A stretch of DNA of 64,000 bases. Origin: Gammaproteobacteria bacterium. Its GTDB lineage: Bacteria; Pseudomonadota; Gammaproteobacteria; Steroidobacterales; Steroidobacteraceae. Position 1 is the stretch's first letter, and every line of letters begins with the position of its first letter. The notes under the pieces were generated by a model. The model was not told the origin of the DNA, did not search any database, and saw nothing but the letters and a program-made list of their open reading frames with translations. The stretch is from NCBI GenBank assembly GCA_025359205.1, contig JANYHD010000040.1, positions 29,600 through 93,599 of the forward strand, given 5' to 3'. The position numbers and the translations under genes were made by a program. This document shows positions 44,301 to 58,917 of the stretch, piece after piece.

Positions 44301-44861
44301 ACGCCGACCGAGGAGAGCGTGCGGCGTGCGGTGGCCATCCAGCTGATCATCAACCGCGAGCTGGGATTGAACCTGAACCAGAATCCCTGGTCGGGCTCCT
44401 ACCTGATGGAGTACCTGACCGACATGGTGGAAGAGGCGGTCTACAAGGAGTTTGACGCGCTGTCGGAACGCGGCGGCGTGCTGGGCGCGATGGAAACGAT
44501 GTACCAGCGCGGCAAGATCCAGGAGGAGAGCCTCTACTACGAAACGCGCAAGCACGACGGCACGCTGCCACTGATCGGCGTGAATACCTTTCTGGCCGAG
44601 CGCGACGCCGCCGCCGAGCATGCGGCCGTGGCACTGATCCGTTCCACGGAAGCCGAGAAGCAGGCTCAGGTCGACGGCGTCCGCAGCTTCCAGGCCCGCA
44701 ACGCCGCGCACAGTGCGGCGGCGCTGGCGCGCCTGCAGGAGGCCGCGGCGCGCGATGGCAATGTGTTCGCGGAGCTGCTCGCGGCTGTCCGTGTCTGCTC
44801 GCTCGGGCAGATCTCTCATGCGCTGTATGAGGTGGGCGGCCAGTATCGTCGCGGCGTGTGA
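41343..44861 (+). CDS. icmF: fused adenosylcobalamin acyl-CoA mutase with G-protein chaperone (IcmF)
   Basis: A 1,173-codon frame; the start at 41,343 gives 1,172 residues and an ATG at 41,355, behind GGAAG, is equally possible. Domains in order: B12-binding (about 30-160, LFDGHDAAINMIRRLL, SSYQGGH, VGGGGTI), a MeaI-type GTPase (P-loop GITGTGGAGKSSL near 213), a linker, and the mutase barrel (from about 560; PYTGGVYPYRREAEDPTRMFAGEG). It rearranges isobutyryl-CoA and n-butyryl-CoA, or the isovaleryl/pivalyl pair. The barrel has Tyr residues in GVYPYRR where, by recollection, typical IcmF has GVFPFK, so substrate needs care. It ends one base inside the next start. Confidence 0.92.
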   Translation: MEAAMSAKNPGRTASLRDSPALAAPSPPLRFVSAASLFDGHDAAINMIRRLLQAHGAEVVHLGHNRSVADIVRAAIQEDADGIAVSSYQGGHNEYFVYMVDMLRELNAGHIRVIVGGGGTIAPEEVAALERHGVEKIYTPEDGRRLGLNGMIDDVFARVRAARRPVYAFGPLNARDHAHIARSITALEGGHGDERAAEQIRQALARTKRSAPVIGITGTGGAGKSSLTDELLQRFVRAFPERQIAVVAIDPTRRRSGGALLGDRIRMNALAAPSVFMRSLATRREHLATSAVLRDVIELYTHAGFDLVLVETAGIGQSDTEIADLADIPLYVMTSEYGAASQLEKIDMLDYAEVIVLNKFEKRGAEDALRDVRKQWRRNHPDRARATEAEVPVYPTIASRFNDPGVNRLFGALLAALDRKGVGKLRWAERDGQPVAIGATEFRTREPLIPGQRSRYLAEISGAGRRCREHLERAAASARLCHSYYESLKGLHDAALPAPLERYATEATADGAADPTLLELRRAYDQALEDIGAEGVGWLKSWPARAAAATADSYQFKVRGKQLRGDNYTETMSRNRVPKLAVPKLSDWGELLRFLGSENLPGAYPYTGGVYPYRREAEDPTRMFAGEGPPERTNRRFHLLARGHAATRLSTAFDSTTLYGEDPDTRPDIYGRTGNSGVSVATLDDMKRLYSGIDLCLPTTSVSMTINGPAPIILAMFMNTAIDQRVERFLKEHGRWPEAGQRIAALHAELRARGLEVPVYRGELPESHDGSGLALLGISGEQLVAPGVLSAAEYARIRAEALASVRGTVQADILKEDQAQNTCIFSTEFAMRMMGDVQQYFIDHRVRNFYSVSISGYHIAEAGANPISQLAFTLANGFTIVEYYLARGMKIDEFAPNLSFFFSNGMDAEYAVIGRVARRIWARAMRELYEGDARSQMLKYHIQTSGRSLHAQEIQFNDIRTTLQALYALFDNCNSLHTNAYDEALTTPTEESVRRAVAIQLIINRELGLNLNQNPWSGSYLMEYLTDMVEEAVYKEFDALSERGGVLGAMETMYQRGKIQEESLYYETRKHDGTLPLIGVNTFLAERDAAAEHAAVALIRSTEAEKQAQVDGVRSFQARNAAHSAAALARLQEAAARDGNVFAELLAAVRVCSLGQISHALYEVGGQYRRGV

Positions 44862-45661
44862 TGTATCCGCAGCGCATCGTCTGCCTGACGGAGGAACCGA
44901 CCGAAGTCCTGTACGCGCTGGGCGAGCAGCAGCGCATCGTCGGCATTTCAGGATTCACCGTGCGGCCAGCGGGCGTGCGCGCCGAGAAGCCACGCGTTTC
45001 TGCATTCACCAGCGCAAGGATCGATAAAATACTTTCGCTCAAGCCGGACCTGGCGATCGGTTTCTCCGACATCCAGGCCGACATCGCCCGGGAGTTGATC
45101 CGGCAGGGGATCGAAGTCTGGATCAGCAATCACCGCTCGGTGGAGGGCATACTGGGCTACATCCGCCGCCTCGGTGCGATGGTCGGTGTGGCTGAGAAGG
45201 CAGAAGTCTATGCGCGGCAACTGGAAGCGGGCCTGGAGCGTATGCGCGCCGCTGCCGCGACACTGCCGCGACGGCCGCGGGTCTATTTCGAGGAATGGGA
45301 CGAACCCATGATCAGTGGCATTGGCTGGGTGTCAGAACTGATCGGCGTGGCTGGCGGTATCGATGTCTTTCCCGAACGCGGCGCCTGTTCGCTCGCGCGC
45401 GATCGCATCATCGCCGATCCTGGCGAAGTCGTGCGCGCGAGGCCGGACATCATTCTCGGGTCCTGGTGTGGCAAGCGCTTCAGGCCTGAACGGGTCGCGG
45501 CGCGCGCCGGCTGGCAGGATATTCTCGCGGTTCGCGACGGCGAACTGCACGAAATCAAGTCGCCCGAAATCCTCCAGCCGGGACCCGCAGCACTGACGGA
45601 TGGCCTGGCCCGTATGCACGCGCTGTTTGCACGCTGGGCCGCGCGCGGCGTGCCCTCATGA
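44861..45661 (+). CDS. BtuF-like cobalamin-binding protein without signal peptide
   Basis: A 266-residue periplasmic-binding-protein fold of the BtuF/FhuD class: RIVCLTEEPTEVLYALGEQQRIVGIS, then SARIDKILSLKPDLAIGFSDIQADIARELIRQG and ARPDIILGSWCGKRF. The ATG overlaps the icmF stop (TGATG). The N-terminus runs straight into the first strand and lacks any signal peptide or lipobox, so as read it would be cytoplasmic. Its link to a B12 enzyme suggests a role in holding or delivering cobalamin inside the cell. An ABC partner is not nearby. Confidence 0.8.
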   Translation: MYPQRIVCLTEEPTEVLYALGEQQRIVGISGFTVRPAGVRAEKPRVSAFTSARIDKILSLKPDLAIGFSDIQADIARELIRQGIEVWISNHRSVEGILGYIRRLGAMVGVAEKAEVYARQLEAGLERMRAAAATLPRRPRVYFEEWDEPMISGIGWVSELIGVAGGIDVFPERGACSLARDRIIADPGEVVRARPDIILGSWCGKRFRPERVAARAGWQDILAVRDGELHEIKSPEILQPGPAALTDGLARMHALFARWAARGVPS

Positions 45662-49309: not shown

Positions 49310-50710
49310 GTGGCGATCGAGCGTAAGTCGATCGACTACGTTGCGCGCCACGAACGCCACGGCCGGGTGATCGACCAGGTGCCATTCTGGTTCCTGGGCA
49401 ATTTTCATTTCTTCACCATCGCCATCGGTTTCGTCGGACCGGGCATGGGCCTGGGTTGGGGCTACACCTCGCTCGCCGGCGCGCTCGGCATCCTGTTTGG
49501 TACCGTATTCGTCGCCTTTCACGCCTCGCAGGGTGTCGAATTAGGCCTTCCGCAGATGATTCAGTCGCGCGCGCAGTTCGGTTATCGGGGCGTGGTGCTG
49601 GTGTTGGTTGGCACGCTCCTCACCTTCGTCGGTTTCAACGTCGCGGACACCGTGCTCACCGCGAACGGATTGCACGGCATCCTGGGCTGGAACGAGCGAG
49701 CCGTGGCCATCGCCGCAGCCATCGCGTCGGGCGTGCTCGCCATCTACGGCCACGACTGGCTGCACCGGATATTCCGCTGGTGTTTCGCGCTGGGACTGCC
49801 GCTGTACACGCTGCTGACGCTGGCGATCATCTTCGGGCGCGTACCGGTGACTCACCTGCACGTTGGGGGCTTCACCTGGGTGGCGTTTGTCGCGCAGTTT
49901 GCCGCCAGCGCGAGCTACAACATCACCTACGCGCCCTCTGTATCGGATTACTCGCGTTACCTGCCGTACGACACGCGGCCGCGCAATATCATCGCGGCAG
50001 TATTCACCGGGGCAGCGACTTCGGCAATTTGGCTCATCTCACTGGGCGCGTGGCTGGCAACACGCCTCGGCGCGAGCGACGGCCTGGTCGCTTTGTACGA
50101 TGCTGGCAACGCGCTGGTAGCCGGGTTTGGCACCATACTGGCGATATCGTCCGTGCTGGCGCTCGTGGCCACCATGGGGCTCAACGCCTACAGCGGCATG
50201 CTGACCATCATCACGGGGCTCAGTTCGCTGTTCGACCTGCGACCCACCGCCCGGCTGCGCGTCGTGGCCGTTGCGGCGCTCGCGGCAGCCTGGCTGGCGC
50301 TCTCCTTCGTCATCAGCGTCAACTCGATCGCACTGGTATTCGCGGTGCTGACGATCATGCTCTACCTGCTGGTGCCATGGACTGCCGTGAACCTGGTCGA
50401 TTATTTTTTTGTACGCCGCGGGCGCTATGCGATCACGCAGCTATTTGTGCCGCACGGCATCTATGGCGCCTGGTCGGCGCGCGGACTGGCCGCCTACGGC
50501 ATCGGCTTCGCCGCAATGCTGCCGTTCTTCGTGCTGCCGGAGTTCTACATGGGGCCGGCTGCACGCGCGCTGGGTGGCGTGGATTTCGGCTGGCTGGTTG
50601 GGCTCGTGGTCTCCGCGGTCGTCTACCTCTGGCTGTCCCGCTCGTTCGACCCCGCACGGGAATCTGCGGCCGTCGCCGAAAGCAACGCCGTGCTCGGCAT
50701 CAGTGCTTGA
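49310..50710 (+). CDS. NCS1-family nucleobase:cation symporter (cytosine/purine permease)
   Basis: A 466-residue transporter with about twelve spans. The NCS1 N-terminal pattern is present (VPFWFLGNFHFFTIAIGFVGPGMGLGWGYTSLAGALGILFGTVFVAFHASQG), then GLPQMIQSRAQFGYRG and SASYNITYAPSVSDYSRYLP. The start is GTG. It probably imports a purine, cytosine or allantoin-like compound. Linked to fhs, whose product 10-formyl-THF feeds purine synthesis. Its last 11 bases overlap the end of the giant cytochrome gene on the other strand. Confidence 0.88.
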   Translation: MAIERKSIDYVARHERHGRVIDQVPFWFLGNFHFFTIAIGFVGPGMGLGWGYTSLAGALGILFGTVFVAFHASQGVELGLPQMIQSRAQFGYRGVVLVLVGTLLTFVGFNVADTVLTANGLHGILGWNERAVAIAAAIASGVLAIYGHDWLHRIFRWCFALGLPLYTLLTLAIIFGRVPVTHLHVGGFTWVAFVAQFAASASYNITYAPSVSDYSRYLPYDTRPRNIIAAVFTGAATSAIWLISLGAWLATRLGASDGLVALYDAGNALVAGFGTILAISSVLALVATMGLNAYSGMLTIITGLSSLFDLRPTARLRVVAVAALAAAWLALSFVISVNSIALVFAVLTIMLYLLVPWTAVNLVDYFFVRRGRYAITQLFVPHGIYGAWSARGLAAYGIGFAAMLPFFVLPEFYMGPAARALGGVDFGWLVGLVVSAVVYLWLSRSFDPARESAAVAESNAVLGISA

Positions 50711-53700
50711 AAGCCGAGTCCGCGACGCGGTGGTAGGGGCCGGGTATGGCCTTCGCCACATGCGCGAGTGTGGCATCGGTGTAGACGTGGCAAGCGCCAC
50801 TGCAGTCACGCAGCTCGCTGGCCGTGTAGCTTGCGCCGGCGCTGGTCTTCGGATGCCGGTCCGCGCGGAAGTTGCGTGCGTGGCAGCCTGCGCAGTTGCC
50901 TGCGTCCGCCGGCGAAGCCCAGGGTATCTGCTCCGTGTTGCTGGTGTGGCACGTGCTGCACTCGAGCGCCGCCTTGTGCTGGCCGGGCCAGGCCGCGGCC
51001 GTGTGTACGAAGTGCAGGGGAGTCCAGTCGGGATAGCTGTGACAGGTTGCGCAGTCGCGCTGCGTGTTCATGTGATTGCCGGGCATGCCCAACGCTATGT
51101 TGTTGTCGTGACAACTGACGCAGCTCGAGCTGAGCTTGCTGTGATCGAGCAGGGCTGGCTTCCAGCCAAGCGTGCCGTGGCAGGCGTCGCATTGCGCGCT
51201 CGTAGGCACGTGATTGGCCGGTTTGCCGGTCGCATGCACGGAATCGTGGCAACTGCGACAGGTGCCAGCGGGCATGGCGGCATGGTCGAAGCGCGCCGGT
51301 GACCAGGCATTGCTCGTGTGGCAGGCCTCGCAATTGGCGCCGCTCGCGATGTGATCCCTGGACTTGCCGCGCGCCGCGCTGCCGTCGTGGCAGCTCACAC
51401 ATGTGCCGTTCAGCTGCAGGTGATCCACGCGCGTGACCGGCGACCACGCAATCGTCATATGACAGCTCTCGCAGCGGTCGCTGCTGTGGATGTGAGTGGG
51501 CGGCTTGCCCATGCCACTCGCCTGTCCATGGCAGCTGATGCAGCTCGCGCCCATGACGCGCTGGTGATTGAAGCCCGCGGCGCCGACCAGACCTGCCGCG
51601 CCGCTGAACGCGGGCTTCGCGGCACTCGTTATGCCAGCTTTTTGGCCAGTAGCTGAACTCGCCGCGGCGCGGCGCGCAAATTTGTCGCGCGAGGAGTGGC
51701 AGCCCGAACCGCCGCAATCCTGCCCGGCGTGGTGCCCCGCCGAGTCACGCACCCACAGGCGCACGCCCGTGTTCGTCTTCCACTTCATGCCGATTTCATG
51801 GCAGCTCATGCAGGTCATCGCCCGTACCGCCGCGTGCTTCATGACGGTGCCCGCGAAGGTCGTGAACACGGTCGCGAGGTGGCATTGCTCGCAGGCGATC
51901 GTCGCCGTGCCATTGGGTGCGTTCGAGGGAATGTGTCCGGTCGTGCCCGACGGCGGCTGCACCAGCGTAGGCGCTGCGATGTTGGCAAAGCTCAGGCCGT
52001 AGGCGTGGCATTGGGCGCAATTGCTGCTGATGTTCACGTGATTCATCGTTGCCAGGGTGTAATTGCCGGCCGTCGTGTGGCACAGCACGCAGTTGTTGCC
52101 GTCGGCGGCCGGCAGCGGGATGTGATTGCTGGGCAGGTCGGTCGCGCCCTTGAAGCTGGTGGTGTTGAAGTGACAGGTCGAACATTCGCCGCCGGTCACG
52201 TGCGCGGTACCGTTGGCTTTGAGTGCCGGCCGCACCAACGTGGCCGGCGTGCCGGCCCAGCTCTTGCCGGCCTCGTGGCAGCTTGAGCAGGGCGTGGACG
52301 TGACCACGCCGTGCACCATCGAGGCCGGCGCCGTGCCGCTGGCGTTCGTGAATGCGAAGCTGGTGAAATTGGCCGGCGCGTGGCAGCTCTCGCAAGCCGC
52401 GCTGCCGATGGGCACGTGATTCGAGGGCAGTGTCCTGGTCGCGGGCGCTCCCACGAAGCTCTTGCCGGCCGCGTGGCAGGTCGCGCAGGCCACGCCTGCT
52501 ACTGCGGCATGCACCATCGCCGGCGGACTCGTGGCACTGGCATTGGTGAACACAAAACTCGTGAAGTTGCCCGGCGCATGGCAACTCTCGCATGCGGCCG
52601 TGCCGATCGGCACGTGGTTCGAGGGCAGGGTCCGCGTGGCCGGCGTGCCCGCGAACGTCAGGCCCGAGGCGTGGCAGGTGGCGCAGGCCATTCCTGATAC
52701 GGCAGCGTGCACCATCGCTGGTGGCGCGGTGCCGCTGGCATTGCTGAACTTGAAGCCGCCAGCGGCAAAGCTCGTGTTTGAATGGCACCTTTCGCAGGCC
52801 GCACTGCCAAAGGGAACGTGGTTTGCCGGCGGCTGCACCAGGGTCGGAGGCGCCATGTTGGCAAAGCTCTTGCCGGCCGCGTGGCAGCTCGCGCAGCCAC
52901 TGGCGATATTGGCGTGACTCATCGCTGCCAGGCTGTAGTTGCTCGGGTTGCTGTGACAGAGGGCGCAGTTGTTGTTGTCGGCGGCCGGCAGCGGCAGGTG
53001 GTTGGCGGGCAGATCGGTGGCGCCCTTGAAGCTCGTCGTATTGAAGTGACAGGTCGAGCACTCGCCCGCGGCCACGTGTGCCGTGCCGTCGGCCTTGAGC
53101 GCCGGACGCACCACGGTCACGGGGCTGCCGACCCAGCTTCTGCCCGCCTCGTGGCAGCTCGAGCATGCGGTCGAGCTGACCAGGCTGTGCACCATCGCCG
53201 GTGGCGCCGTGCCACTGACGTTGCTGAAGCTGAAGGCCGTGAAGTTGGCCGGCGCATGGCAGCCCTCGCAGGCCACGGTGCCCACCGGCACGTGATTGGA
53301 CGGGACGGTTCGCGTCGCTGGCGCGCCGACGAATGTCAGCCCCGAGGCATGGCAGCTGGCGCAGGCTGCGCCCGGGACGGCCGCGTGCACCATCGCAGGA
53401 GGCGCGGTGCCGCTGGTATTGGTGAATACAAAGGTCGTGAAGTTGCCTGGCGCGTGACAGCTCTCGCAGGCCCCACTGCCGATCGGCACGTGGTTCGGCG
53501 GCAGCGTCCGCGTTGCCGGGGTTCCGGCAAAGCTCAGGCCCGCGGCGTGGCAGCTCGCGCAGGCCATGCCGCTGACTGCTGCGTGCACCATGGCGGGCGG
53601 TGCGCTGGCGCTGGCATTCGTGAACTTGAATCCGCCACTGGCAAAGTTCGAACTCGAGTGGCAGCTCTCGCAACCGGCGCTGCCAAAGGCAATGTGATTG

Positions 53701-56700
53701 GCGGGTGGCAACACAAGCGTGGGCGGCGCCATGTTGGCGAAGCTCTTGCCCGAAGCGTGACAGGTGGCGCAGGTCTCGGCTGTCACCACGGAGTGATTCA
53801 TGGCGTAGAGCGCAAAGTTGGCGAGGTTGCTGTGGCAGGTGGCGCAATTGCTTGCCGAGCCACCCGGCAGCGGGATGTGGTTGCTCGGCAGATCGGTGGC
53901 GCCCTTGAAGCTGGTGGTATTGAAGTGGCAGGTGGAGCATTCGCCCGCAGCCACATGCGCGGTGCCATCTGCCTTGGTGGCGGGCCTCAGCAGCGTAACG
54001 GGCGTGCCGATCCAGCTGTTACCGGCTTCATGGCAGGTCGAACATGCGGTCGATGCGACCTGGGCATGCACCATCCCGGGCGGCGCCGTGCCGCTGACAT
54101 TCGTGAACGCAAAACTCGTGAAGTTGCTGGCCGTGTGGCAGCTCTCGCAGGCCGACGCGCCGACCGGCACGTGCGTGGCCGGCAGCACTTTGGTCGCGGG
54201 TGTGCCGACGAAGCTCATTCCCGCCGCATGACAGGAGGCGCAGGCCGCTCCGGCAACCAAGGCATGCACCATGGCCGGTGGTGAAGTGCCGCTCGCGTTC
54301 GTGAACCTGAAACCCCCGATCGCAAAACTCGTGCTGGAATGACAGCCCTCGCAGGCCGCGGCGCCAAAGGCCAGGTGATTCGCCGGGGGCTGCGCCAATG
54401 TCGGCGGCGCCATGTTGGCAAAGCTCTTGCCCGCAGCGTGGCAGACGGCACAGCCATTGCCGATGTTCACGTGGTTCATCGTGGACAGCGTGTAGTTGCC
54501 GGTGTTCGTATGGCACAGCGCGCAGTTGTTGTTGTCGGCCGATGGCAAGGGGATGTGGTTGCTGGGCAGGTCGGTCGCGCCCTTGAAGCTGGTGGTGTTG
54601 AAATGGCAGGTCGAGCACTCGCCCGTGGCCACGTGCGCCGTGCCGTCGGCCTTCACGGCCGGGCGCAACACCGTCGCGGGAGCGCCAATCCAACTGTGTC
54701 CGGCCTCGTGACAGGCAGAGCAGGCTGTCGCTGCGACAATCGCGTGCACCATCGCAGGCGGCGCCGCGCCACTGGCATTCGTGAATACAAAGTTCGTGAA
54801 GTTGGTGGCGGTGTGGCAACTCTCGCAAGGCCCGGCGCCCACCGGCACGTGCGTAACAGGCAGCGTTTTAGTGGCGGGCACGCCGGCGAATGTCAGTCCG
54901 GAAGCGTGGCAGGTGGCGCAGGCCATGCCCGCGACGGCCGCGTGCACCATGGCAGGCGGTGCGCTGCCGCTGGCATTACTGAACTTGAAGCCGCCCGTTG
55001 CAAAACTGGAATTCGAATGGCAGGTCTCGCAAGCCGAAGTTCCGAATGAGACGTGATTGGCGGGCGGTTGCACCAGCGTGGGCGGCGCCATGTTGGCGAA
55101 GCTCTTGCCGGCCGCGTGGCATTGGGCGCAGTTACTGGTGATGTTGGCGTGGCTCATGGTGGCCACGCTGTAGTCGTTCGGTTTGCTATGGCAAAGCGCG
55201 CAATTGTTGTTGTCGGAGGAAGGCAGGGGAATGTGATTGCTCGGCAGGTCAGTGGCGCCCTTGAAGCTCGTCGTGTTGAAGTGGCAGGTGGAGCACTCGC
55301 CCGCTGCCACGTGTGCGGTGCCGTCGGCCTTGGTTGCAGGTCGCAGTAGCGTCGCGGGCGTGCCGATCCAGCCGTTGCCGGCTTCATGGCAGGTTGAACA
55401 CGCAGTCGACGCAACCAGGCTGTGCACCATGGCGGGTGGCGCCGTGCCACTGGCGTTCGTGAATGCAAAATTGCTGAAGTTGGTGGCGGTGTGGCAGCTC
55501 TCGCAGGTCGCTGTGCCGATCGGCACGTGCGTGGACGGGAGCACCTTGGTGACAGGCGTGCCGACAAAGCTCAAGCCGGCCGCATGACAGCTGGCGCAGG
55601 CTGTGCCAGTAACCGCCGCGTGCACCATCGCGGGAGGCGCAGAGCCGCTGGCGTTGTTGAAACTGAAACTCGTGAAGTTGCTCGCGGCATGGCAGGCCTC
55701 GCAAGCAGCGGTCCCGAAAGCGATGTGATTCGACGGCGGTACCACCAATGTCGGTGGCGCCATGTTGGCAAAGTTCTTGCCGGTCGCGTGGCAGGTCGCG
55801 CAGCCGCTGGCGATATTGACGTGGCTCATGGTGGCCACGCTGTAGTCGTTCGCATTGCTATGGCACAGGGCGCAATTGTTGTTGTCGGCCGAGGGCAAAG
55901 GAAAGTGATTGCTCGGCAGGTCGGTGGCGCCCTTGAAGCTCGTCGTATTGAAGTGGCAGGTCGAGCACTCGCCCGTGGCCGTGTGGGCCGTACCGTCCGC
56001 CTTCAGTGCCGGCCGCAGTACCGTCGCGGGCGTGCCGATCCAGCTCTTGCCGGCTTCGTGGCAGGCTGAGCAGGCCGTCCCGCCCACCGCGCTGTGAATC
56101 ATGGATGGCGGGGCGATGCCGCTGGCATTGCTGAACATGAAGGTCGTGAAGTTGCCGGCCGCGTGGCAGCTCTCACAGCCCGCGGTGCCGATCGGCACGT
56201 GATTGACAGGCAGGGTCTTCGTCACCGGTGTCCCGGCGAAGCTCAATCCCGCTGCATGACAGCTTGCGCAGGCCATGCCCGGCACCGCGGCGTGCACCAT
56301 CGCGGGCGGTGCGTTGCCGCTGGCATTCGTGAACCTGAAACCACTGGTCGTGAAAGTGGAACTCGAATGACAGCTCTCGCAGGCCGCTGCGCCGAACGCG
56401 ATGTGATTGGCCGGCGGCTGCACCAGCGCGGGCGGCGCCATGTTGGCGAAACTCAAGCCGGCCGCATGGCAGCTCGCGCAAGCCTCGGCCGTCACCACGC
56501 TGTGGTCCATCGTGTAGAGCGCAAAATTGGCCAGGTTGGCGTGGCAGGAACCGCAGGTGCTGGCCGAGGCCGCCGGCAATGGAATGTGGTTGCTGGGCAG
56601 GTCGGTGGCGCCCTTGAAGCTCACAGTATTGAAGTGGCAGGCCGAGCATTCGCCGACCGCCACGTGCGCACTGCCATCCGCCTTGGTCAACGGACGCACC

Positions 56701-58265
56701 ACGGTCAGTGGCGCACCGATCCAGCTCATGCCGGCCTCATGACAGCTCGAGCAGGTCATGGAGCCGACCTGGCTGTGCACCATGGCGGGCGGCGCGGTGC
56801 CGCTCGCATTGGTGAAAGCGAAGCCGCTGAAATTCGAGTTCGAGTGACAGCCTTCGCAAGGCCCGGCACCGGTCGGGATGTGATTGGGCGGTACTGTGAC
56901 CGTGAGCTTGGGCGACTTGCCGACATCGGTCTTGCCTGCGCCGTGACAGCTGCTGCAGTTGTCCGTGAAACCGCTGTGATTCATCGGCGGCACGGCATTT
57001 TGAATCACGAAGCTGGTGAAGCCGGCAGGCGAGTGGCAGTTGACGCAGGCCGTGGTGCCCACTGGAATGTGATTGCTGGGCTCGACCACGGTCGAGGGCG
57101 TGCCGGCCCAGGTCAAGCCCTGCGCGTGGCAACTCTCACAGCTCATGCCCGCCACGGCTGCGTGCACCATCGCTGGCGCTGAACTGCCGCTGGCATTGGG
57201 GAAGGCGAAGCCGCCGATGGAGAAATTGCTGCCCGCATGGCAGCTTTCGCACGGCGCCGCGCCAGATGCCACGTGATTCGCCGGTGGTTCGACCAGCGCC
57301 GGCGCCGCCAGGTTTGTGAAGCTCAGTCCTGCGGCGTGACAGGTGGCACAGCCGCTGGCGATGCCGTCGTGACGCATCAGGTATACGCTGTAGTCGTTCG
57401 GGTTCGAGTGGCAGAGCGTGCAGGGTTGTGTGGTGGGAATGTGACCGACCGGCTGCAGCGTGCCGGTTTTGAACGAGGTGGTGGACAGGTGACAGACACC
57501 GCAGTCCTGGCTGGCCGGGTGCGGCGCCGGTGGGCGCGTCACCATCGTCACTCCGAAGAAACTCAGGCCGGCTTCGTGGCAATTGGCGCAAGGCATGGGC
57601 GGCGAGACCGCCGGGTGATTCATGCTCGCGCCACCGAAACTCGTGTACTGGGTCGGAATGTGGCAGGCCTCGCATGGCGCCGCAGCCACGGGTATATGCG
57701 TTGGCGGCATGCCCTTGGAGGCCACGCCGTTGTGGCAGGCCGCGCAGCCGGTCACGATGCCGACGTGGTTGAAGACGGCGCCCGCCCAACTCATCGTCGT
57801 ATGGCAGGCATCGCATTCCAGCGACGTGTCGATGTGACCCGGGCCTTTGCCCTGGGCCTGCACGCCGTTGTGGCAACTCGAGCAACTCCCGATCACCTCG
57901 GCGTGATCGAAGTTCACCGCGGGATTCCAGGCGACTGGTGTATGGCAGGCCCCACAGCGATTGGAACTCATGATGTGGCTGACGGGCTTGGCCGTGGCCC
58001 GTACACCATGGATGCCCAGGCCGTGGCAAGCGGCGCAATCGGTCGGTGTCCCCTTGAATACGGCGTTGTTGTGGCAGCTTTCGCAGGGCAGGTCGCGGTG
58101 TTGGCCGACGAGTTCGAAGCCCGTGGTCAAATGGTCGAAGCGCGGTTGCGCCGCATCAGCGGCCAGCGCGCCGGCGGCCCACGAAGACAGCAGCCAAACC
58201 GCAACTGCGCCGCGCAAGAAGCGCGCAGCGCTGGCTGCCGAATCGCGTGGCGGCGGGACGAGCAC
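50700..58265 (-). CDS. giant exported multihaem c-type cytochrome (80 candidate haem motifs)
   Basis: A 2,521-residue protein. Residues 1-35 form a signal peptide (AVAVWLLSSWAAGALAAD). By hand count it has 78 CXXCH motifs, one CX4CH (CGGSGCH near 2184) and one CX3CH (CSGACH near 2488). Layout: N-terminal domain with motifs 1-8; a divergent 9-motif module (from residue 255); four 7-motif modules (from 540, 767, 991, 1217); two 9-motif modules (1443, 1736); a partial module (2028-2180); and a different C-terminal domain with motifs 69-80. In the modules nearly every linker has one extra His, giving a bis-His pattern. The start is GTG, directly after an in-frame stop, without a clear ribosome-binding site. 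There is no lipobox or anchor. Long-range electron transfer is the likely role; partners are unknown. Confidence 0.93.
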   Translation of the reverse strand: MLVPPPRDSAASAARFLRGAVAVWLLSSWAAGALAADAAQPRFDHLTTGFELVGQHRDLPCESCHNNAVFKGTPTDCAACHGLGIHGVRATAKPVSHIMSSNRCGACHTPVAWNPAVNFDHAEVIGSCSSCHNGVQAQGKGPGHIDTSLECDACHTTMSWAGAVFNHVGIVTGCAACHNGVASKGMPPTHIPVAAAPCEACHIPTQYTSFGGASMNHPAVSPPMPCANCHEAGLSFFGVTMVTRPPAPHPASQDCGVCHLSTTSFKTGTLQPVGHIPTTQPCTLCHSNPNDYSVYLMRHDGIASGCATCHAAGLSFTNLAAPALVEPPANHVASGAAPCESCHAGSNFSIGGFAFPNASGSSAPAMVHAAVAGMSCESCHAQGLTWAGTPSTVVEPSNHIPVGTTACVNCHSPAGFTSFVIQNAVPPMNHSGFTDNCSSCHGAGKTDVGKSPKLTVTVPPNHIPTGAGPCEGCHSNSNFSGFAFTNASGTAPPAMVHSQVGSMTCSSCHEAGMSWIGAPLTVVRPLTKADGSAHVAVGECSACHFNTVSFKGATDLPSNHIPLPAASASTCGSCHANLANFALYTMDHSVVTAEACASCHAAGLSFANMAPPALVQPPANHIAFGAAACESCHSSSTFTTSGFRFTNASGNAPPAMVHAAVPGMACASCHAAGLSFAGTPVTKTLPVNHVPIGTAGCESCHAAGNFTTFMFSNASGIAPPSMIHSAVGGTACSACHEAGKSWIGTPATVLRPALKADGTAHTATGECSTCHFNTTSFKGATDLPSNHFPLPSADNNNCALCHSNANDYSVATMSHVNIASGCATCHATGKNFANMAPPTLVVPPSNHIAFGTAACEACHAASNFTSFSFNNASGSAPPAMVHAAVTGTACASCHAAGLSFVGTPVTKVLPSTHVPIGTATCESCHTATNFSNFAFTNASGTAPPAMVHSLVASTACSTCHEAGNGWIGTPATLLRPATKADGTAHVAAGECSTCHFNTTSFKGATDLPSNHIPLPSSDNNNCALCHSKPNDYSVATMSHANITSNCAQCHAAGKSFANMAPPTLVQPPANHVSFGTSACETCHSNSSFATGGFKFSNASGSAPPAMVHAAVAGMACATCHASGLTFAGVPATKTLPVTHVPVGAGPCESCHTATNFTNFVFTNASGAAPPAMVHAIVAATACSACHEAGHSWIGAPATVLRPAVKADGTAHVATGECSTCHFNTTSFKGATDLPSNHIPLPSADNNNCALCHTNTGNYTLSTMNHVNIGNGCAVCHAAGKSFANMAPPTLAQPPANHLAFGAAACEGCHSSTSFAIGGFRFTNASGTSPPAMVHALVAGAACASCHAAGMSFVGTPATKVLPATHVPVGASACESCHTASNFTSFAFTNVSGTAPPGMVHAQVASTACSTCHEAGNSWIGTPVTLLRPATKADGTAHVAAGECSTCHFNTTSFKGATDLPSNHIPLPGGSASNCATCHSNLANFALYAMNHSVVTAETCATCHASGKSFANMAPPTLVLPPANHIAFGSAGCESCHSSSNFASGGFKFTNASASAPPAMVHAAVSGMACASCHAAGLSFAGTPATRTLPPNHVPIGSGACESCHAPGNFTTFVFTNTSGTAPPAMVHAAVPGAACASCHASGLTFVGAPATRTVPSNHVPVGTVACEGCHAPANFTAFSFSNVSGTAPPAMVHSLVSSTACSSCHEAGRSWVGSPVTVVRPALKADGTAHVAAGECSTCHFNTTSFKGATDLPANHLPLPAADNNNCALCHSNPSNYSLAAMSHANIASGCASCHAAGKSFANMAPPTLVQPPANHVPFGSAACERCHSNTSFAAGGFKFSNASGTAPPAMVHAAVSGMACATCHASGLTFAGTPATRTLPSNHVPIGTAACESCHAPGNFTSFVFTNASATSPPAMVHAAVAGVACATCHAAGKSFVGAPATRTLPSNHVPIGSAACESCHAPANFTSFAFTNASGTAPASMVHGVVTSTPCSSCHEAGKSWAGTPATLVRPALKANGTAHVTGGECSTCHFNTTSFKGATDLPSNHIPLPAADGNNCVLCHTTAGNYTLATMNHVNISSNCAQCHAYGLSFANIAAPTLVQPPSGTTGHIPSNAPNGTATIACEQCHLATVFTTFAGTVMKHAAVRAMTCMSCHEIGMKWKTNTGVRLWVRDSAGHHAGQDCGGSGCHSSRDKFARRAAASSATGQKAGITSAAKPAFSGAAGLVGAAGFNHQRVMGASCISCHGQASGMGKPPTHIHSSDRCESCHMTIAWSPVTRVDHLQLNGTCVSCHDGSAARGKSRDHIASGANCEACHTSNAWSPARFDHAAMPAGTCRSCHDSVHATGKPANHVPTSAQCDACHGTLGWKPALLDHSKLSSSCVSCHDNNIALGMPGNHMNTQRDCATCHSYPDWTPLHFVHTAAAWPGQHKAALECSTCHTSNTEQIPWASPADAGNCAGCHARNFRADRHPKTSAGASYTASELRDCSGACHVYTDATLAHVAKAIPGPYHRVADSAFKH
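52185..53939 (-). repeat. two tandem 9-motif modules inside the cytochrome gene
   Basis: Two successive units of 879 and 876 bases, each opening with CSTCH-FNTTSFKGATDLP. They equal the 7-motif unit plus an extra pair of haem motifs (an ASGLTF/AAGKSF-type and an APxNFT-type segment). The two copies are closely alike in both DNA and protein. Confidence 0.85.
53940..56648 (-). repeat. four tandem 7-motif modules inside the cytochrome gene
   Basis: Units of 681, 672, 678 and 678 bases (224-227 residues), each opening with CS[AT]CH-FNT[TV]SFKGATDLP. The seven segments in order are FNTTSFKG, NDYSVATM/NYTLSTM, FANMAPPTL, the FTNASG/MVHA segment, AAGLSFAG, a second FTNASG/MVHS segment and EAGxSWIG with KADGTAH. 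The close match between copies points to recent tandem duplication or gene conversion, and it makes copy number open to assembly error. Confidence 0.88.
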
Positions 58266-58578: not shown

Positions 58579-58917
58579 TTACCTGCCGATCTGCTTGCTG
58601 ACCGCATTTTCCTGCTGGTTCAGCGTGCGCTTTTCCTGCTTCGTGATGTGACTGCCGTTCTGGCTGGCCATATCGCGCTCTTCCTGCCGGATCTGGCGAT
58701 CATCCTTGTGCAGCGCTGCAGCCTGCGCCGGGGTCAGGTCGCCTTCTTTCCGTTCCTCGTGGATGCGCCGGTTCTGGTTGGCGAGGCGATGGTTGACTTC
58801 AGCGCGGCGCGGATGCGACTTCTGCCACGCAGTCTCTGCATTGGCGGTGGCCGTGAAACAGGCCAGCGAAGCAATGGCCGTCGCCGTGGTCAGAAGAAAT
58901 TTTGTGGACTTCAACAT
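58579..58917 (-). CDS. small periplasmic protein of unknown function (HPRRxEVNxRLxNQNRRI type)
   Basis: A 112-residue protein with signal peptide (LLTTATAIASLACFTATANAE). The mature part is highly charged and helical: WQKSHPRRAEVNHRLANQNRRIHEERKEGDLTPAQAAALHKDDRQIRQEERDMASQNG. Similar proteins are common in Proteobacteria as uncharacterised periplasmic proteins, by recollection. AAGGAG stands five bases before the ATG. It is upstream of the cytochrome gene on the same strand, 313 bases away, and may or may not share its transcript. Confidence 0.82.
   Translation of the reverse strand: MLKSTKFLLTTATAIASLACFTATANAETAWQKSHPRRAEVNHRLANQNRRIHEERKEGDLTPAQAAALHKDDRQIRQEERDMASQNGSHITKQEKRTLNQQENAVSKQIGR

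What the first reader, a model, noticed from the sequence alone, without database searches (positions are those of the whole stretch)
50700..58265. A single gene for an exported cytochrome with 80 candidate haem sites
Hand counting of the 2,521-residue product gives 78 CXXCH, one CX4CH and one CX3CH. Most known multihaem cytochromes have 4-40 sites; only a few very large ones, for example in anaerobic methane-oxidising archaea and some metal reducers, exceed this. In a gammaproteobacterial, carbohydrate-using context it is unexpected. It could be an extracellular or periplasmic haem wire, an electron store (capacitor), or a haem/iron reserve.
Basis: partly seen in the sequence, partly recalled or inferred. 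Interest (0 to 1): 0.92.

Follow-up and report, generated by a model that had tools for sequence, protein, structure and literature searches.

The report
Eighty-haem extension of an outer cytochrome
One gene of a gammaproteobacterium encodes a protein with 80 haem-attachment motifs that is a lengthened second copy of the predicted outer cytochrome of a known gene cluster (PCC3), so it would likely serve as an extra-long electron cable on the cell surface and would let us test why such proteins need so many haems.

Summary
The count is right: the minus-strand ORF 58265..50700 (2,521 aa, no internal stop) has 78 CXXCH, one CX4CH and one CX3CH. No exact repeat in the gene exceeds 44 bp, and an 80%-identical protein on a 2.27-Mb contig keeps the same haem spacing. 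It is a second, longer copy of the extracellular cytochrome of a PCC3 porin-cytochrome cluster. The same genome holds that cluster on another contig: inner-membrane protein, 21-haem periplasmic cytochrome, 44-haem extracellular cytochrome and an 818-aa protein in the porin position. PCC3 cytochromes with up to 85 haem sites were published in 2017 (PMC5566968). What I did not see in the papers read: haem number grows by whole modules (here 9,7,7,7,7,9,9) between fixed end caps, and in 4 of the 9 genomes of the genus that carry this cytochrome a long copy lies away from the cluster, while each has one strong porin match. I infer a long-form outer haem cable sharing the single conduit (confidence 0.5). 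Docking, haem loading, export and electron direction are untested. Two structure predictions failed (pLDDT 39 and 31).

The parts
50700..58265 (-). whole coding sequence, 2,521 aa, 80 haem-attachment motifs (stop codon included)
58158..58265 (-). predicted Sec-type signal segment (residues 1-36; hydrophobic stretch 20-34; no Cys before residue 61, so no lipoprotein box)
   Evidence: hydropathy only, no signal-peptide program was available
57351..58157 (-). N-terminal cap, residues 37-305, haems 1-10, spacing 16,27,24,23,23,24,28,29,27,24
   Evidence: residues 15-305 are 64% identical to the PCC3 extracellular cytochrome of the same genome
56481..57350 (-). module 1, residues 306-595, 9 haems
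55803..56480 (-). module 2, residues 596-821, 7 haems
55131..55802 (-). module 3, residues 822-1045, 7 haems
54453..55130 (-). module 4, residues 1046-1271, 7 haems
53772..54452 (-). module 5, residues 1272-1498, 7 haems
52896..53771 (-). module 6, residues 1499-1790, 9 haems
   Evidence: tandem repeat of period 198 bp at 53187-53624
52020..52895 (-). module 7, residues 1791-2082, 9 haems
   Evidence: tandem repeat of period 198 bp at 52312-52749
50703..52019 (-). C-terminal cap, residues 2083-2521, 15 haems, spacing 42,27,32,58,23,24,23,24,23,23,23,31,22,30, ending in FKH
   Evidence: region 2066-2521 is 71% identical to the PCC3 extracellular cytochrome; keeps 146 of 152 columns invariant in 8 homologues
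51696..51716 (-). CX4CH motif (residues 2184-2190)
   Evidence: its Cys and His columns are invariant in the 10 rows of A2
50787..50804 (-). CX3CH motif (residues 2488-2493)
   Evidence: its Cys and His columns are invariant in the 10 rows of A2
58579..58917 (-). small 112-aa protein gene upstream, same strand; kept beside the orphan cytochrome in genome G012
   Evidence: (no Pfam match)

Best explanation
The gene encodes a 2,521-residue protein with 80 haem-attachment motifs that is a separately encoded, lengthened paralogue of the predicted extracellular cytochrome of the genome's single PCC3 cluster, and it would likely work as a long-form outer haem cable that docks through its conserved end caps on that cluster's porin and carries electrons further from the cell than the 44-haem form. 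Shown: motif count, paralogy, conserved caps, module structure, purifying selection, one strong porin match and one strong inner-membrane match per genome. Inferred: export, full haem loading, bis-histidine ligation, a linear haem chain, docking on the shared porin. Not decided: which cap docks and which way electrons flow. I lean to discharge of respiratory electrons onto minerals or humic matter, because no RuBisCO was found and COX1-type genes are present. At about 8-10 angstrom per haem (about 100 angstrom for the ten-haem MtrA is cited in PMC5566968; the lower value is recalled) the chain would span very roughly 60-80 nm, against 35-45 nm for the short form.
For: Same-genome PCC3 cluster on contig C38 (L025): inner-membrane protein with SGXXG and two WX3HX13H motifs, 21-haem periplasmic cytochrome, 42+2-haem extracellular cytochrome, 818-aa protein in the porin position; these motifs and this gene order are those given for PCC3 in PMC5566968. 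In the whole genome, PF14522 matches lie only in the window gene and the C38 cluster, the porin has one match and the inner-membrane protein one. Caps: N 64% and C 71% identical to the C38 protein. The C-cap keeps 146 of 152 columns invariant in 8 homologues, and 88 of the 94 that are not Cys or His, but equals the majority in only 135 of 301 variable columns. Ligands: 71 of 80 motifs have exactly one non-motif His since the preceding motif, 78 of 80 at least one, the nearest 6-11 residues upstream in 73 of those 78. All 4 genomes in which the orphan was seen also carry PCC3 cluster genes (in G012 the cluster is split over two contigs).
Against: No porin, periplasmic cytochrome or inner-membrane gene lies beside the gene (and whole-genome searches). 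Docking is inferred from sequence conservation alone; the caps may be conserved for folding. Module 3 is as similar to the C38 protein as the N-cap is (65% against 64%; module 1 is 50%). In the C-cap tree the orphans fall into two starred clades, so they may have arisen twice or exchanged pieces, although in the N-cap tree they group together (93/93). Structure predictions failed (pLDDT 38.6 and 30.6). PCC3 has no verified function: in Sideroxydans ES-1 both clusters went down on Fe(II) (PMC8788666, passages) and the extracellular cytochrome Slit_1448 is 0 in all eight listed proteome samples (PMC12016527, passage).
Confidence: 0.5

Rival explanations
1. It is released or loosely bound outside the cell and works as a free electron store (capacitor) or matrix cable, independent of the PCC3 porin.
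For: Orphan locus without porin; no lipobox and no hydrophobic segment beyond the signal-like one; 80 redox centres in one chain; storage is a role suggested for PCC3 cytochromes in PMC10734462 (passages).
Against: Caps remain as in the cluster-encoded form, including 88 of 94 non-ligand invariant columns in the C-cap, which a free store would not obviously need; the orphan was seen only in genomes with PCC3 genes (4 of 4).
Confidence: 0.25
2. It polymerises end to end into a cytochrome filament like those of OmcS, OmcE or OmcZ.
For: Multi-haem repeats with an upstream His per haem; extracellular cytochrome polymers are said to have evolved several times (PMC9473688, title and abstract start in a search listing).
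Against: The full-length sequence had no PDB match at E <= 0.001, the module profile none at E <= 0.01; the C-cap profile best matched MtrC, and none of its 12 matches is named OmcS, OmcE or OmcZ, though one weak match (28pb_A, 'Cytochrome c', E 0.0074) is of a kind I did not identify. A chain this long has less need of polymerisation.
Confidence: 0.08
3. A redundant paralogue drifting towards loss, poorly expressed or only partly haem-loaded.
For: No clear ribosome-binding site at the GTG start and no sigma-70-like promoter found, though shuffles also gave only 0.8; seen in 4 of the 9 genus genomes that have the family; whether such proteins can be fully loaded is left open in PMC7096707 (passage).
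Against: dN/dS 0.13-0.16, all 160 cysteines in motifs, collinear spacing in P0002, no internal stop.
Confidence: 0.1
4. A haem or iron reserve.
For: The number of haem sites; a Peripla_BP_2 protein (PF01497) is encoded 5 kb away at 44858-45661, a family that as recalled binds B12, siderophores or haem; a TonB-type receptor lies beside the G001 copy.
Against: Covalent c-type attachment makes recovery costly; an extra His precedes 78 of 80 motifs, as electron-transfer haems need; the PF01497 gene overlaps the end of a B12-binding methylmalonyl-CoA mutase gene, so B12 is its likelier ligand.
Confidence: 0.02
5. An assembly artefact (false join or expansion of repeats).
For: In genomes G002 and G012 the homologous gene breaks at contig ends, as repeats often cause; the window genome is a 43-contig draft.
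Against: No exact repeat over 44 bp; P0002 on a 2.27-Mb contig and G001 (76 sites on a 155-kb contig) show the same architecture.
Confidence: 0.02

Closest known systems
PCC3 extracellular multihaem cytochrome (He et al. 2017, PMC5566968)
   Same: Homologous to the extracellular cytochrome of a same-genome cluster that matches PCC3 in gene order, inner-membrane motifs and periplasmic haem number; very many haem sites (published median 34, maximum 85); low residues-per-haem ratio; internal repeats.
   Different: Encoded apart from porin, periplasmic cytochrome and inner-membrane gene, as a second longer copy; module and cap architecture described here.
MtrC/OmcA outer-membrane decahaem cytochromes
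   Same: Assumed place outside the porin; C-cap profile best matches MtrC in the PDB (E 6.9e-6); PF22113 match.
   Different: Eight times the haems; no lipobox (that MtrC is a lipoprotein is recalled); TIGR03507 score 130.6, below its cut-off of 209.3.
DmsE/MtrA-type decahaem cytochromes (TIGR03508)
   Same: Dense c3-type haem spacing; best TIGR03508 stretch in the C-cap (residues 2233-2410).
   Different: 158.9 bits, below the cut-off of 192.2.
Giant multihaem cytochromes of anaerobic methane-oxidising archaea
   Same: Very large multihaem proteins thought to conduct electrons outwards.
   Different: Groups A and B of those carry S-layer domains, B also a peptidase-like region (PMC9012536, passages); the nine Pfam and NCBIfam families matched here are cytochrome families or motifs and one DUF.

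Membership tests
PCC3 gene cluster (window locus) | beta-barrel porin gene in the same cluster | tested here: not met
   The only own-genome match to the PCC3 porin is on contig C38; none of the ten neighbouring proteins scanned looks like one, though Pfam does not name the C38 porin either. Window 1-41 kb was not annotated protein by protein.
PCC3 gene cluster (window locus) | periplasmic multihaem cytochrome of about 21 haems in the same cluster | tested here: not met
   PF14522 matches in the genome lie only in the window gene and on C38; other cytochrome families were not searched.
PCC3 gene cluster (window locus) | conserved inner-membrane protein in the same cluster | tested here: not met
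   Own-genome match only on C38.
PCC3 gene cluster (contig C38 of the same genome) | inner-membrane protein with SGXXG and two WX3HX13H motifs | tested here: met
   SGLIG at 117, WX3HX13H at 76 and 257; motif definition from PMC5566968.
PCC3 gene cluster (contig C38 of the same genome) | extracellular and periplasmic multihaem cytochromes side by side | tested here: met
   521 aa with 21 CXXCH, then 1,391 aa with 42+2.
PCC3 gene cluster (contig C38 of the same genome) | beta-barrel porin | tested here: inconclusive
   An 818-aa protein stands in the porin position and is kept in the compared loci; Pfam shows only SPOR and TPR-like stretches; its barrel was not tested.
PCC3 extracellular cytochrome (protein level) | homology over both ends to a cluster-encoded extracellular cytochrome | tested here: met
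   64% (N-cap) and 71% (C-cap) identity; spacing of both caps shared.
PCC3 extracellular cytochrome (protein level) | location outside the cell, bound to the porin | not testable with these tools
   Only a hydrophobic signal-like segment was seen.
Cytochrome c7/c3 superfamily | Pfam gathering score | tested here: met
   PF14522 314.4 bits (cut-off 24.8), PF14537 235.2 (25), PF02085 84.3 (22.9).
OmcA/MtrC family (TIGR03507) | NCBIfam cut-off | tested here: not met
   130.6 against 209.3 bits.
DmsE decahaem family (TIGR03508) | NCBIfam cut-off | tested here: not met
   158.9 against 192.2 bits.
OmcS/OmcE/OmcZ-type polymerising cytochromes | sequence or fold similarity to solved filaments | tested here: inconclusive
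   No match named as one of these (one weak match, 28pb_A, not identified); folds not testable because the predicted models had pLDDT 38.6 and 30.6.

The most novel reading that the evidence does not exclude
Some Gammaproteobacteria build haem cables of adjustable length: haem number rises by whole 5-, 7- or 9-haem modules inserted between two fixed docking caps, and one cell keeps a short (44-haem) and a long (80-haem) interchangeable outer cytochrome for a single membrane conduit, the long one encoded elsewhere in the genome so that reach can be switched independently.
Probability: 0.35. Interest if true: 0.72.

Novelty: new variant of a known kind. Interest (0 to 1): 0.5.

Why it matters
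A 2019 review (PMC7096707, one passage) says it is unclear why one protein should need so many haems and whether such proteins are ever made with all of them. Here one genome holds a short and a long form with matching ends, and relatives form a ladder of lengths that differ by whole modules (for example 71 and 78 sites, apart by exactly one seven-haem module). Haem number can therefore be treated as a natural variable: reach, charge storage and conduction can be compared between forms with the same ends. It also warns that counting PCC3 clusters alone misses orphan copies.

Tried and rejected
Assembly artefact: rejected on repeat length and on P0002. Plasmid origin: a tblastn of the plasmid collection gave one weak match (Emticicia oligotrophica, 23% identity); not pursued. 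Structure: two AlphaFold2 jobs on two modules (9 rows) and on the C-cap (10 rows) gave pLDDT 38.6 and 30.6; no fold search was run on them. Solved structures by sequence: none for the full protein, none for the module profile, 12 for the C-cap profile, MtrC first. Promoter and terminator scan: nothing above chance. Ten neighbours of the orphan in G001 and G002 (TonB-type receptor, DUF480, FKBP isomerase, GGDEF protein, esterase, aldo/keto reductase, hydantoinase B, acetyl-CoA hydrolase, enoyl-CoA hydratase, one without match) gave no functional lead. Metabolic context: no RuBisCO, four secretins, three COX1-type matches, not split into oxidases and NO reductases. Papers: nothing in the titles and abstract starts listed, nor in the passages I read, describes an orphan PCC3 extracellular cytochrome or the module ladder. 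Nine papers were opened, passages only; two searches gave nothing used here. Absence from print is not shown.

Full report
Observation. The minus-strand ORF at window 50700-58265 encodes 2,521 residues without an internal stop. It holds 78 CXXCH, one CX3CH and one CX4CH; every one of its 160 cysteines lies in one of these 80 motifs. 200 shuffles gave at most 3 CXXCH.

Organism. The window's genome is an unnamed 43-contig draft of 2.98 Mb. Close homologues bear the name Steroidobacteraceae.

Assembly. The longest exact direct repeat within the gene is 44 bp and no 51-mer occurs twice, so collapse or false expansion by short reads is unlikely. The nearest homologue, P0002 (2,407 aa, 80% identity), comes from a 2.27-Mb contig. 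Its gene call lacks the first 116 residues, and its 77 sites match sites 4-80 of the window protein with the same spacing apart from 1-2 residue shifts. Against G012 and G002 homologues dN/dS is 0.13, 0.15 and 0.16 in three stretches (dS near 1).

What it is. Pfam places it in the cytochrome c7/c3 group; it scores below the cut-offs of the decahaem NCBIfam families. The own-genome PF14522 search found matches in two places only: the window gene and contig C38. On C38 (locus L025) lies a cluster: a CcmI/CycH-like protein, a 282-aa membrane protein with SGXXG and two WX3HX13H motifs, a 521-aa protein with 21 CXXCH, a 1,391-aa protein with 42 CXXCH plus one CX3CH and one CX4CH, and an 818-aa protein in the porin position. 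This is the PCC3 cluster of He et al. 2017 in gene order, haem number of the periplasmic subunit (published median 21) and inner-membrane motifs (PMC5566968, passages). The beta-barrel nature of the 818-aa protein was not tested.

Relation of the two. The window protein shares both ends with the C38 extracellular cytochrome: N-cap 64% identity over 304 residues, C-cap region 71% over 456; module 3 is 65% and module 1 50% identical to its best counterpart. Of 152 C-cap columns invariant in 8 homologues, the window keeps 146; of the 94 that are not Cys or His, 88; of 301 variable columns it equals the majority in 135. Seven of those 8 rows come from loci with a porin match; the context of L054 was not examined. 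Between the caps the window protein has seven modules of 9,7,7,7,7,9,9 haems; by the same reading of its spacing the C38 form has three, of 7,5,7. Six stretches of the window's repeat array, cut at another point of the same repeat, are 66-77% identical to each other.

Module ladder. Of 656 homologues found, 120 were listed. Of these 120 (the window protein included), 112 show the N-cap spacing and 44 parse with both caps under a strict rule; the other 76 were not counted, although many differ only in one interval of the C-cap. Among the 44 the commonest form is 50 sites as 7,9,9 (13 of 44). P0004 (71 sites) and P0003 (78 sites) differ by exactly one seven-haem module. A branch of five-haem modules shows 45, 55 and 65 sites among the parsed rows, and 40 sites in loci L053, L058 and L059. 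Proteins outside this scheme reach 122-133 CXXCH (P0049, P0034, P0111, P0101), more than the 85 or 86 reported for Agromonas oligotrophica S58 (PMC5566968, PMC7096707; passages).

Distribution. Of 60 genomes searched (the window's own and 59 relatives), 19 match the protein at E <= 0.001; in G032 the match is weak and may be its periplasmic cytochrome. The inner-membrane protein matches in 24 of 60; 18 of the 19 carriers have it at E below 1e-50 and the 19th (G039) has a partial match (E 4e-13) at a contig edge; the other five matches are weak (E 1.5e-8 to 3.1e-12). In the genus, 9 of 15 genomes carry the family, and 4 of these 9 (the window genome, G001, G002, G012) have an additional copy away from the cluster. 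It is long in the window genome (80 sites) and in G001 (76); in G002 and G012 it is cut by contig ends, so its length there is unknown. Some of the other five are incomplete (72% in G004 and G014), so an orphan may be missed there. Each of the four has one strong porin match (G002 also a weak one, E 7.7e-5; one search scored at most 6 candidates a genome, all 17 in the window's own). The G012 copy keeps the small 112-aa gene and the DUF1800 gene upstream as in the window; the G001 copy has other neighbours. A cluster-encoded form can also be giant: L060 (Burkholderiales) has at least 81 motifs, cut by the contig end, beside a 24-haem cytochrome and an inner-membrane homologue.

Descent. In a tree of N-caps (33 rows) the four orphans, with P0003 and P0004, form one group (93/93) apart from the cluster-encoded forms. 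In a tree of C-caps (32 rows, G012 orphan not available) they form two starred groups: window, P0002, G002, and G001, P0003, P0004. Two origins, or exchange of pieces between paralogues, are possible.

How it may work. 71 of 80 motifs are preceded by exactly one non-motif His since the last motif, 78 by at least one, the nearest 6-11 residues before in 73 of the 78. I infer bis-histidine ligation and a conducting rather than catalytic role. The N-terminus looks like a signal segment; there is no lipobox and no other hydrophobic segment. With one conduit and two outer cytochromes of different length per genome, the simplest mechanism is a long-form cable sharing the porin. The electron direction is open: no RuBisCO, three COX1-type matches, four secretins for possible export. 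Structure prediction did not help.

Known and new. PCC3, its large haem numbers, its internal repeats and its proposed wire function are published (PMC5566968, PMC10734462; passages). Function remains unverified (PMC12442390, passages); in Sideroxydans ES-1 both clusters were lowered on Fe(II) (PMC8788666, passages) and one extracellular cytochrome was not detected in the listed proteomes (PMC12016527, passage). The separately encoded long paralogue beside a single conduit, and growth by whole modules between fixed caps, are the additions made here; I saw neither in what I read. Verdict: real, well assembled, conserved; a new variant of a known kind.

Noticed in passing
P0034, P0049, P0101, P0111: Homologues with 122-133 CXXCH in 3,274-4,069 residues, above the 85-86 given as the largest in the two papers read.
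   Followed up: partly
L060:11715-21002: Burkholderiales PCC3-type locus whose extracellular cytochrome has at least 81 CXXCH and runs off the contig; the periplasmic cytochrome beside it has 24.
   Followed up: partly
P0064-P0120; L053, L058, L059: A branch of the family is built of five-haem modules: 4, 6 or 8 modules in the parsed rows, three in these loci.
   Followed up: no
L064:3728-5119 and window 49310-50710: The cytosine/purine permease gene lies at the 3' end of the giant gene in the window (convergent, 11-bp overlap) but upstream and divergent in G002: a local rearrangement or an assembly difference.
   Followed up: no
window 58579-58917 and L030:286-621: A 112-aa protein with no Pfam match is kept upstream of the orphan cytochrome in two genomes (86% identity).
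   Followed up: no
L025:4090-7379 (minus strand): A ferredoxin/FAD oxidoreductase (11 of 13) and an ankyrin-repeat protein (10 of 13) lie in the compared loci that hold the inner-membrane gene; neither is among the four PCC3 components named in the passages of PMC5566968.
   Followed up: partly
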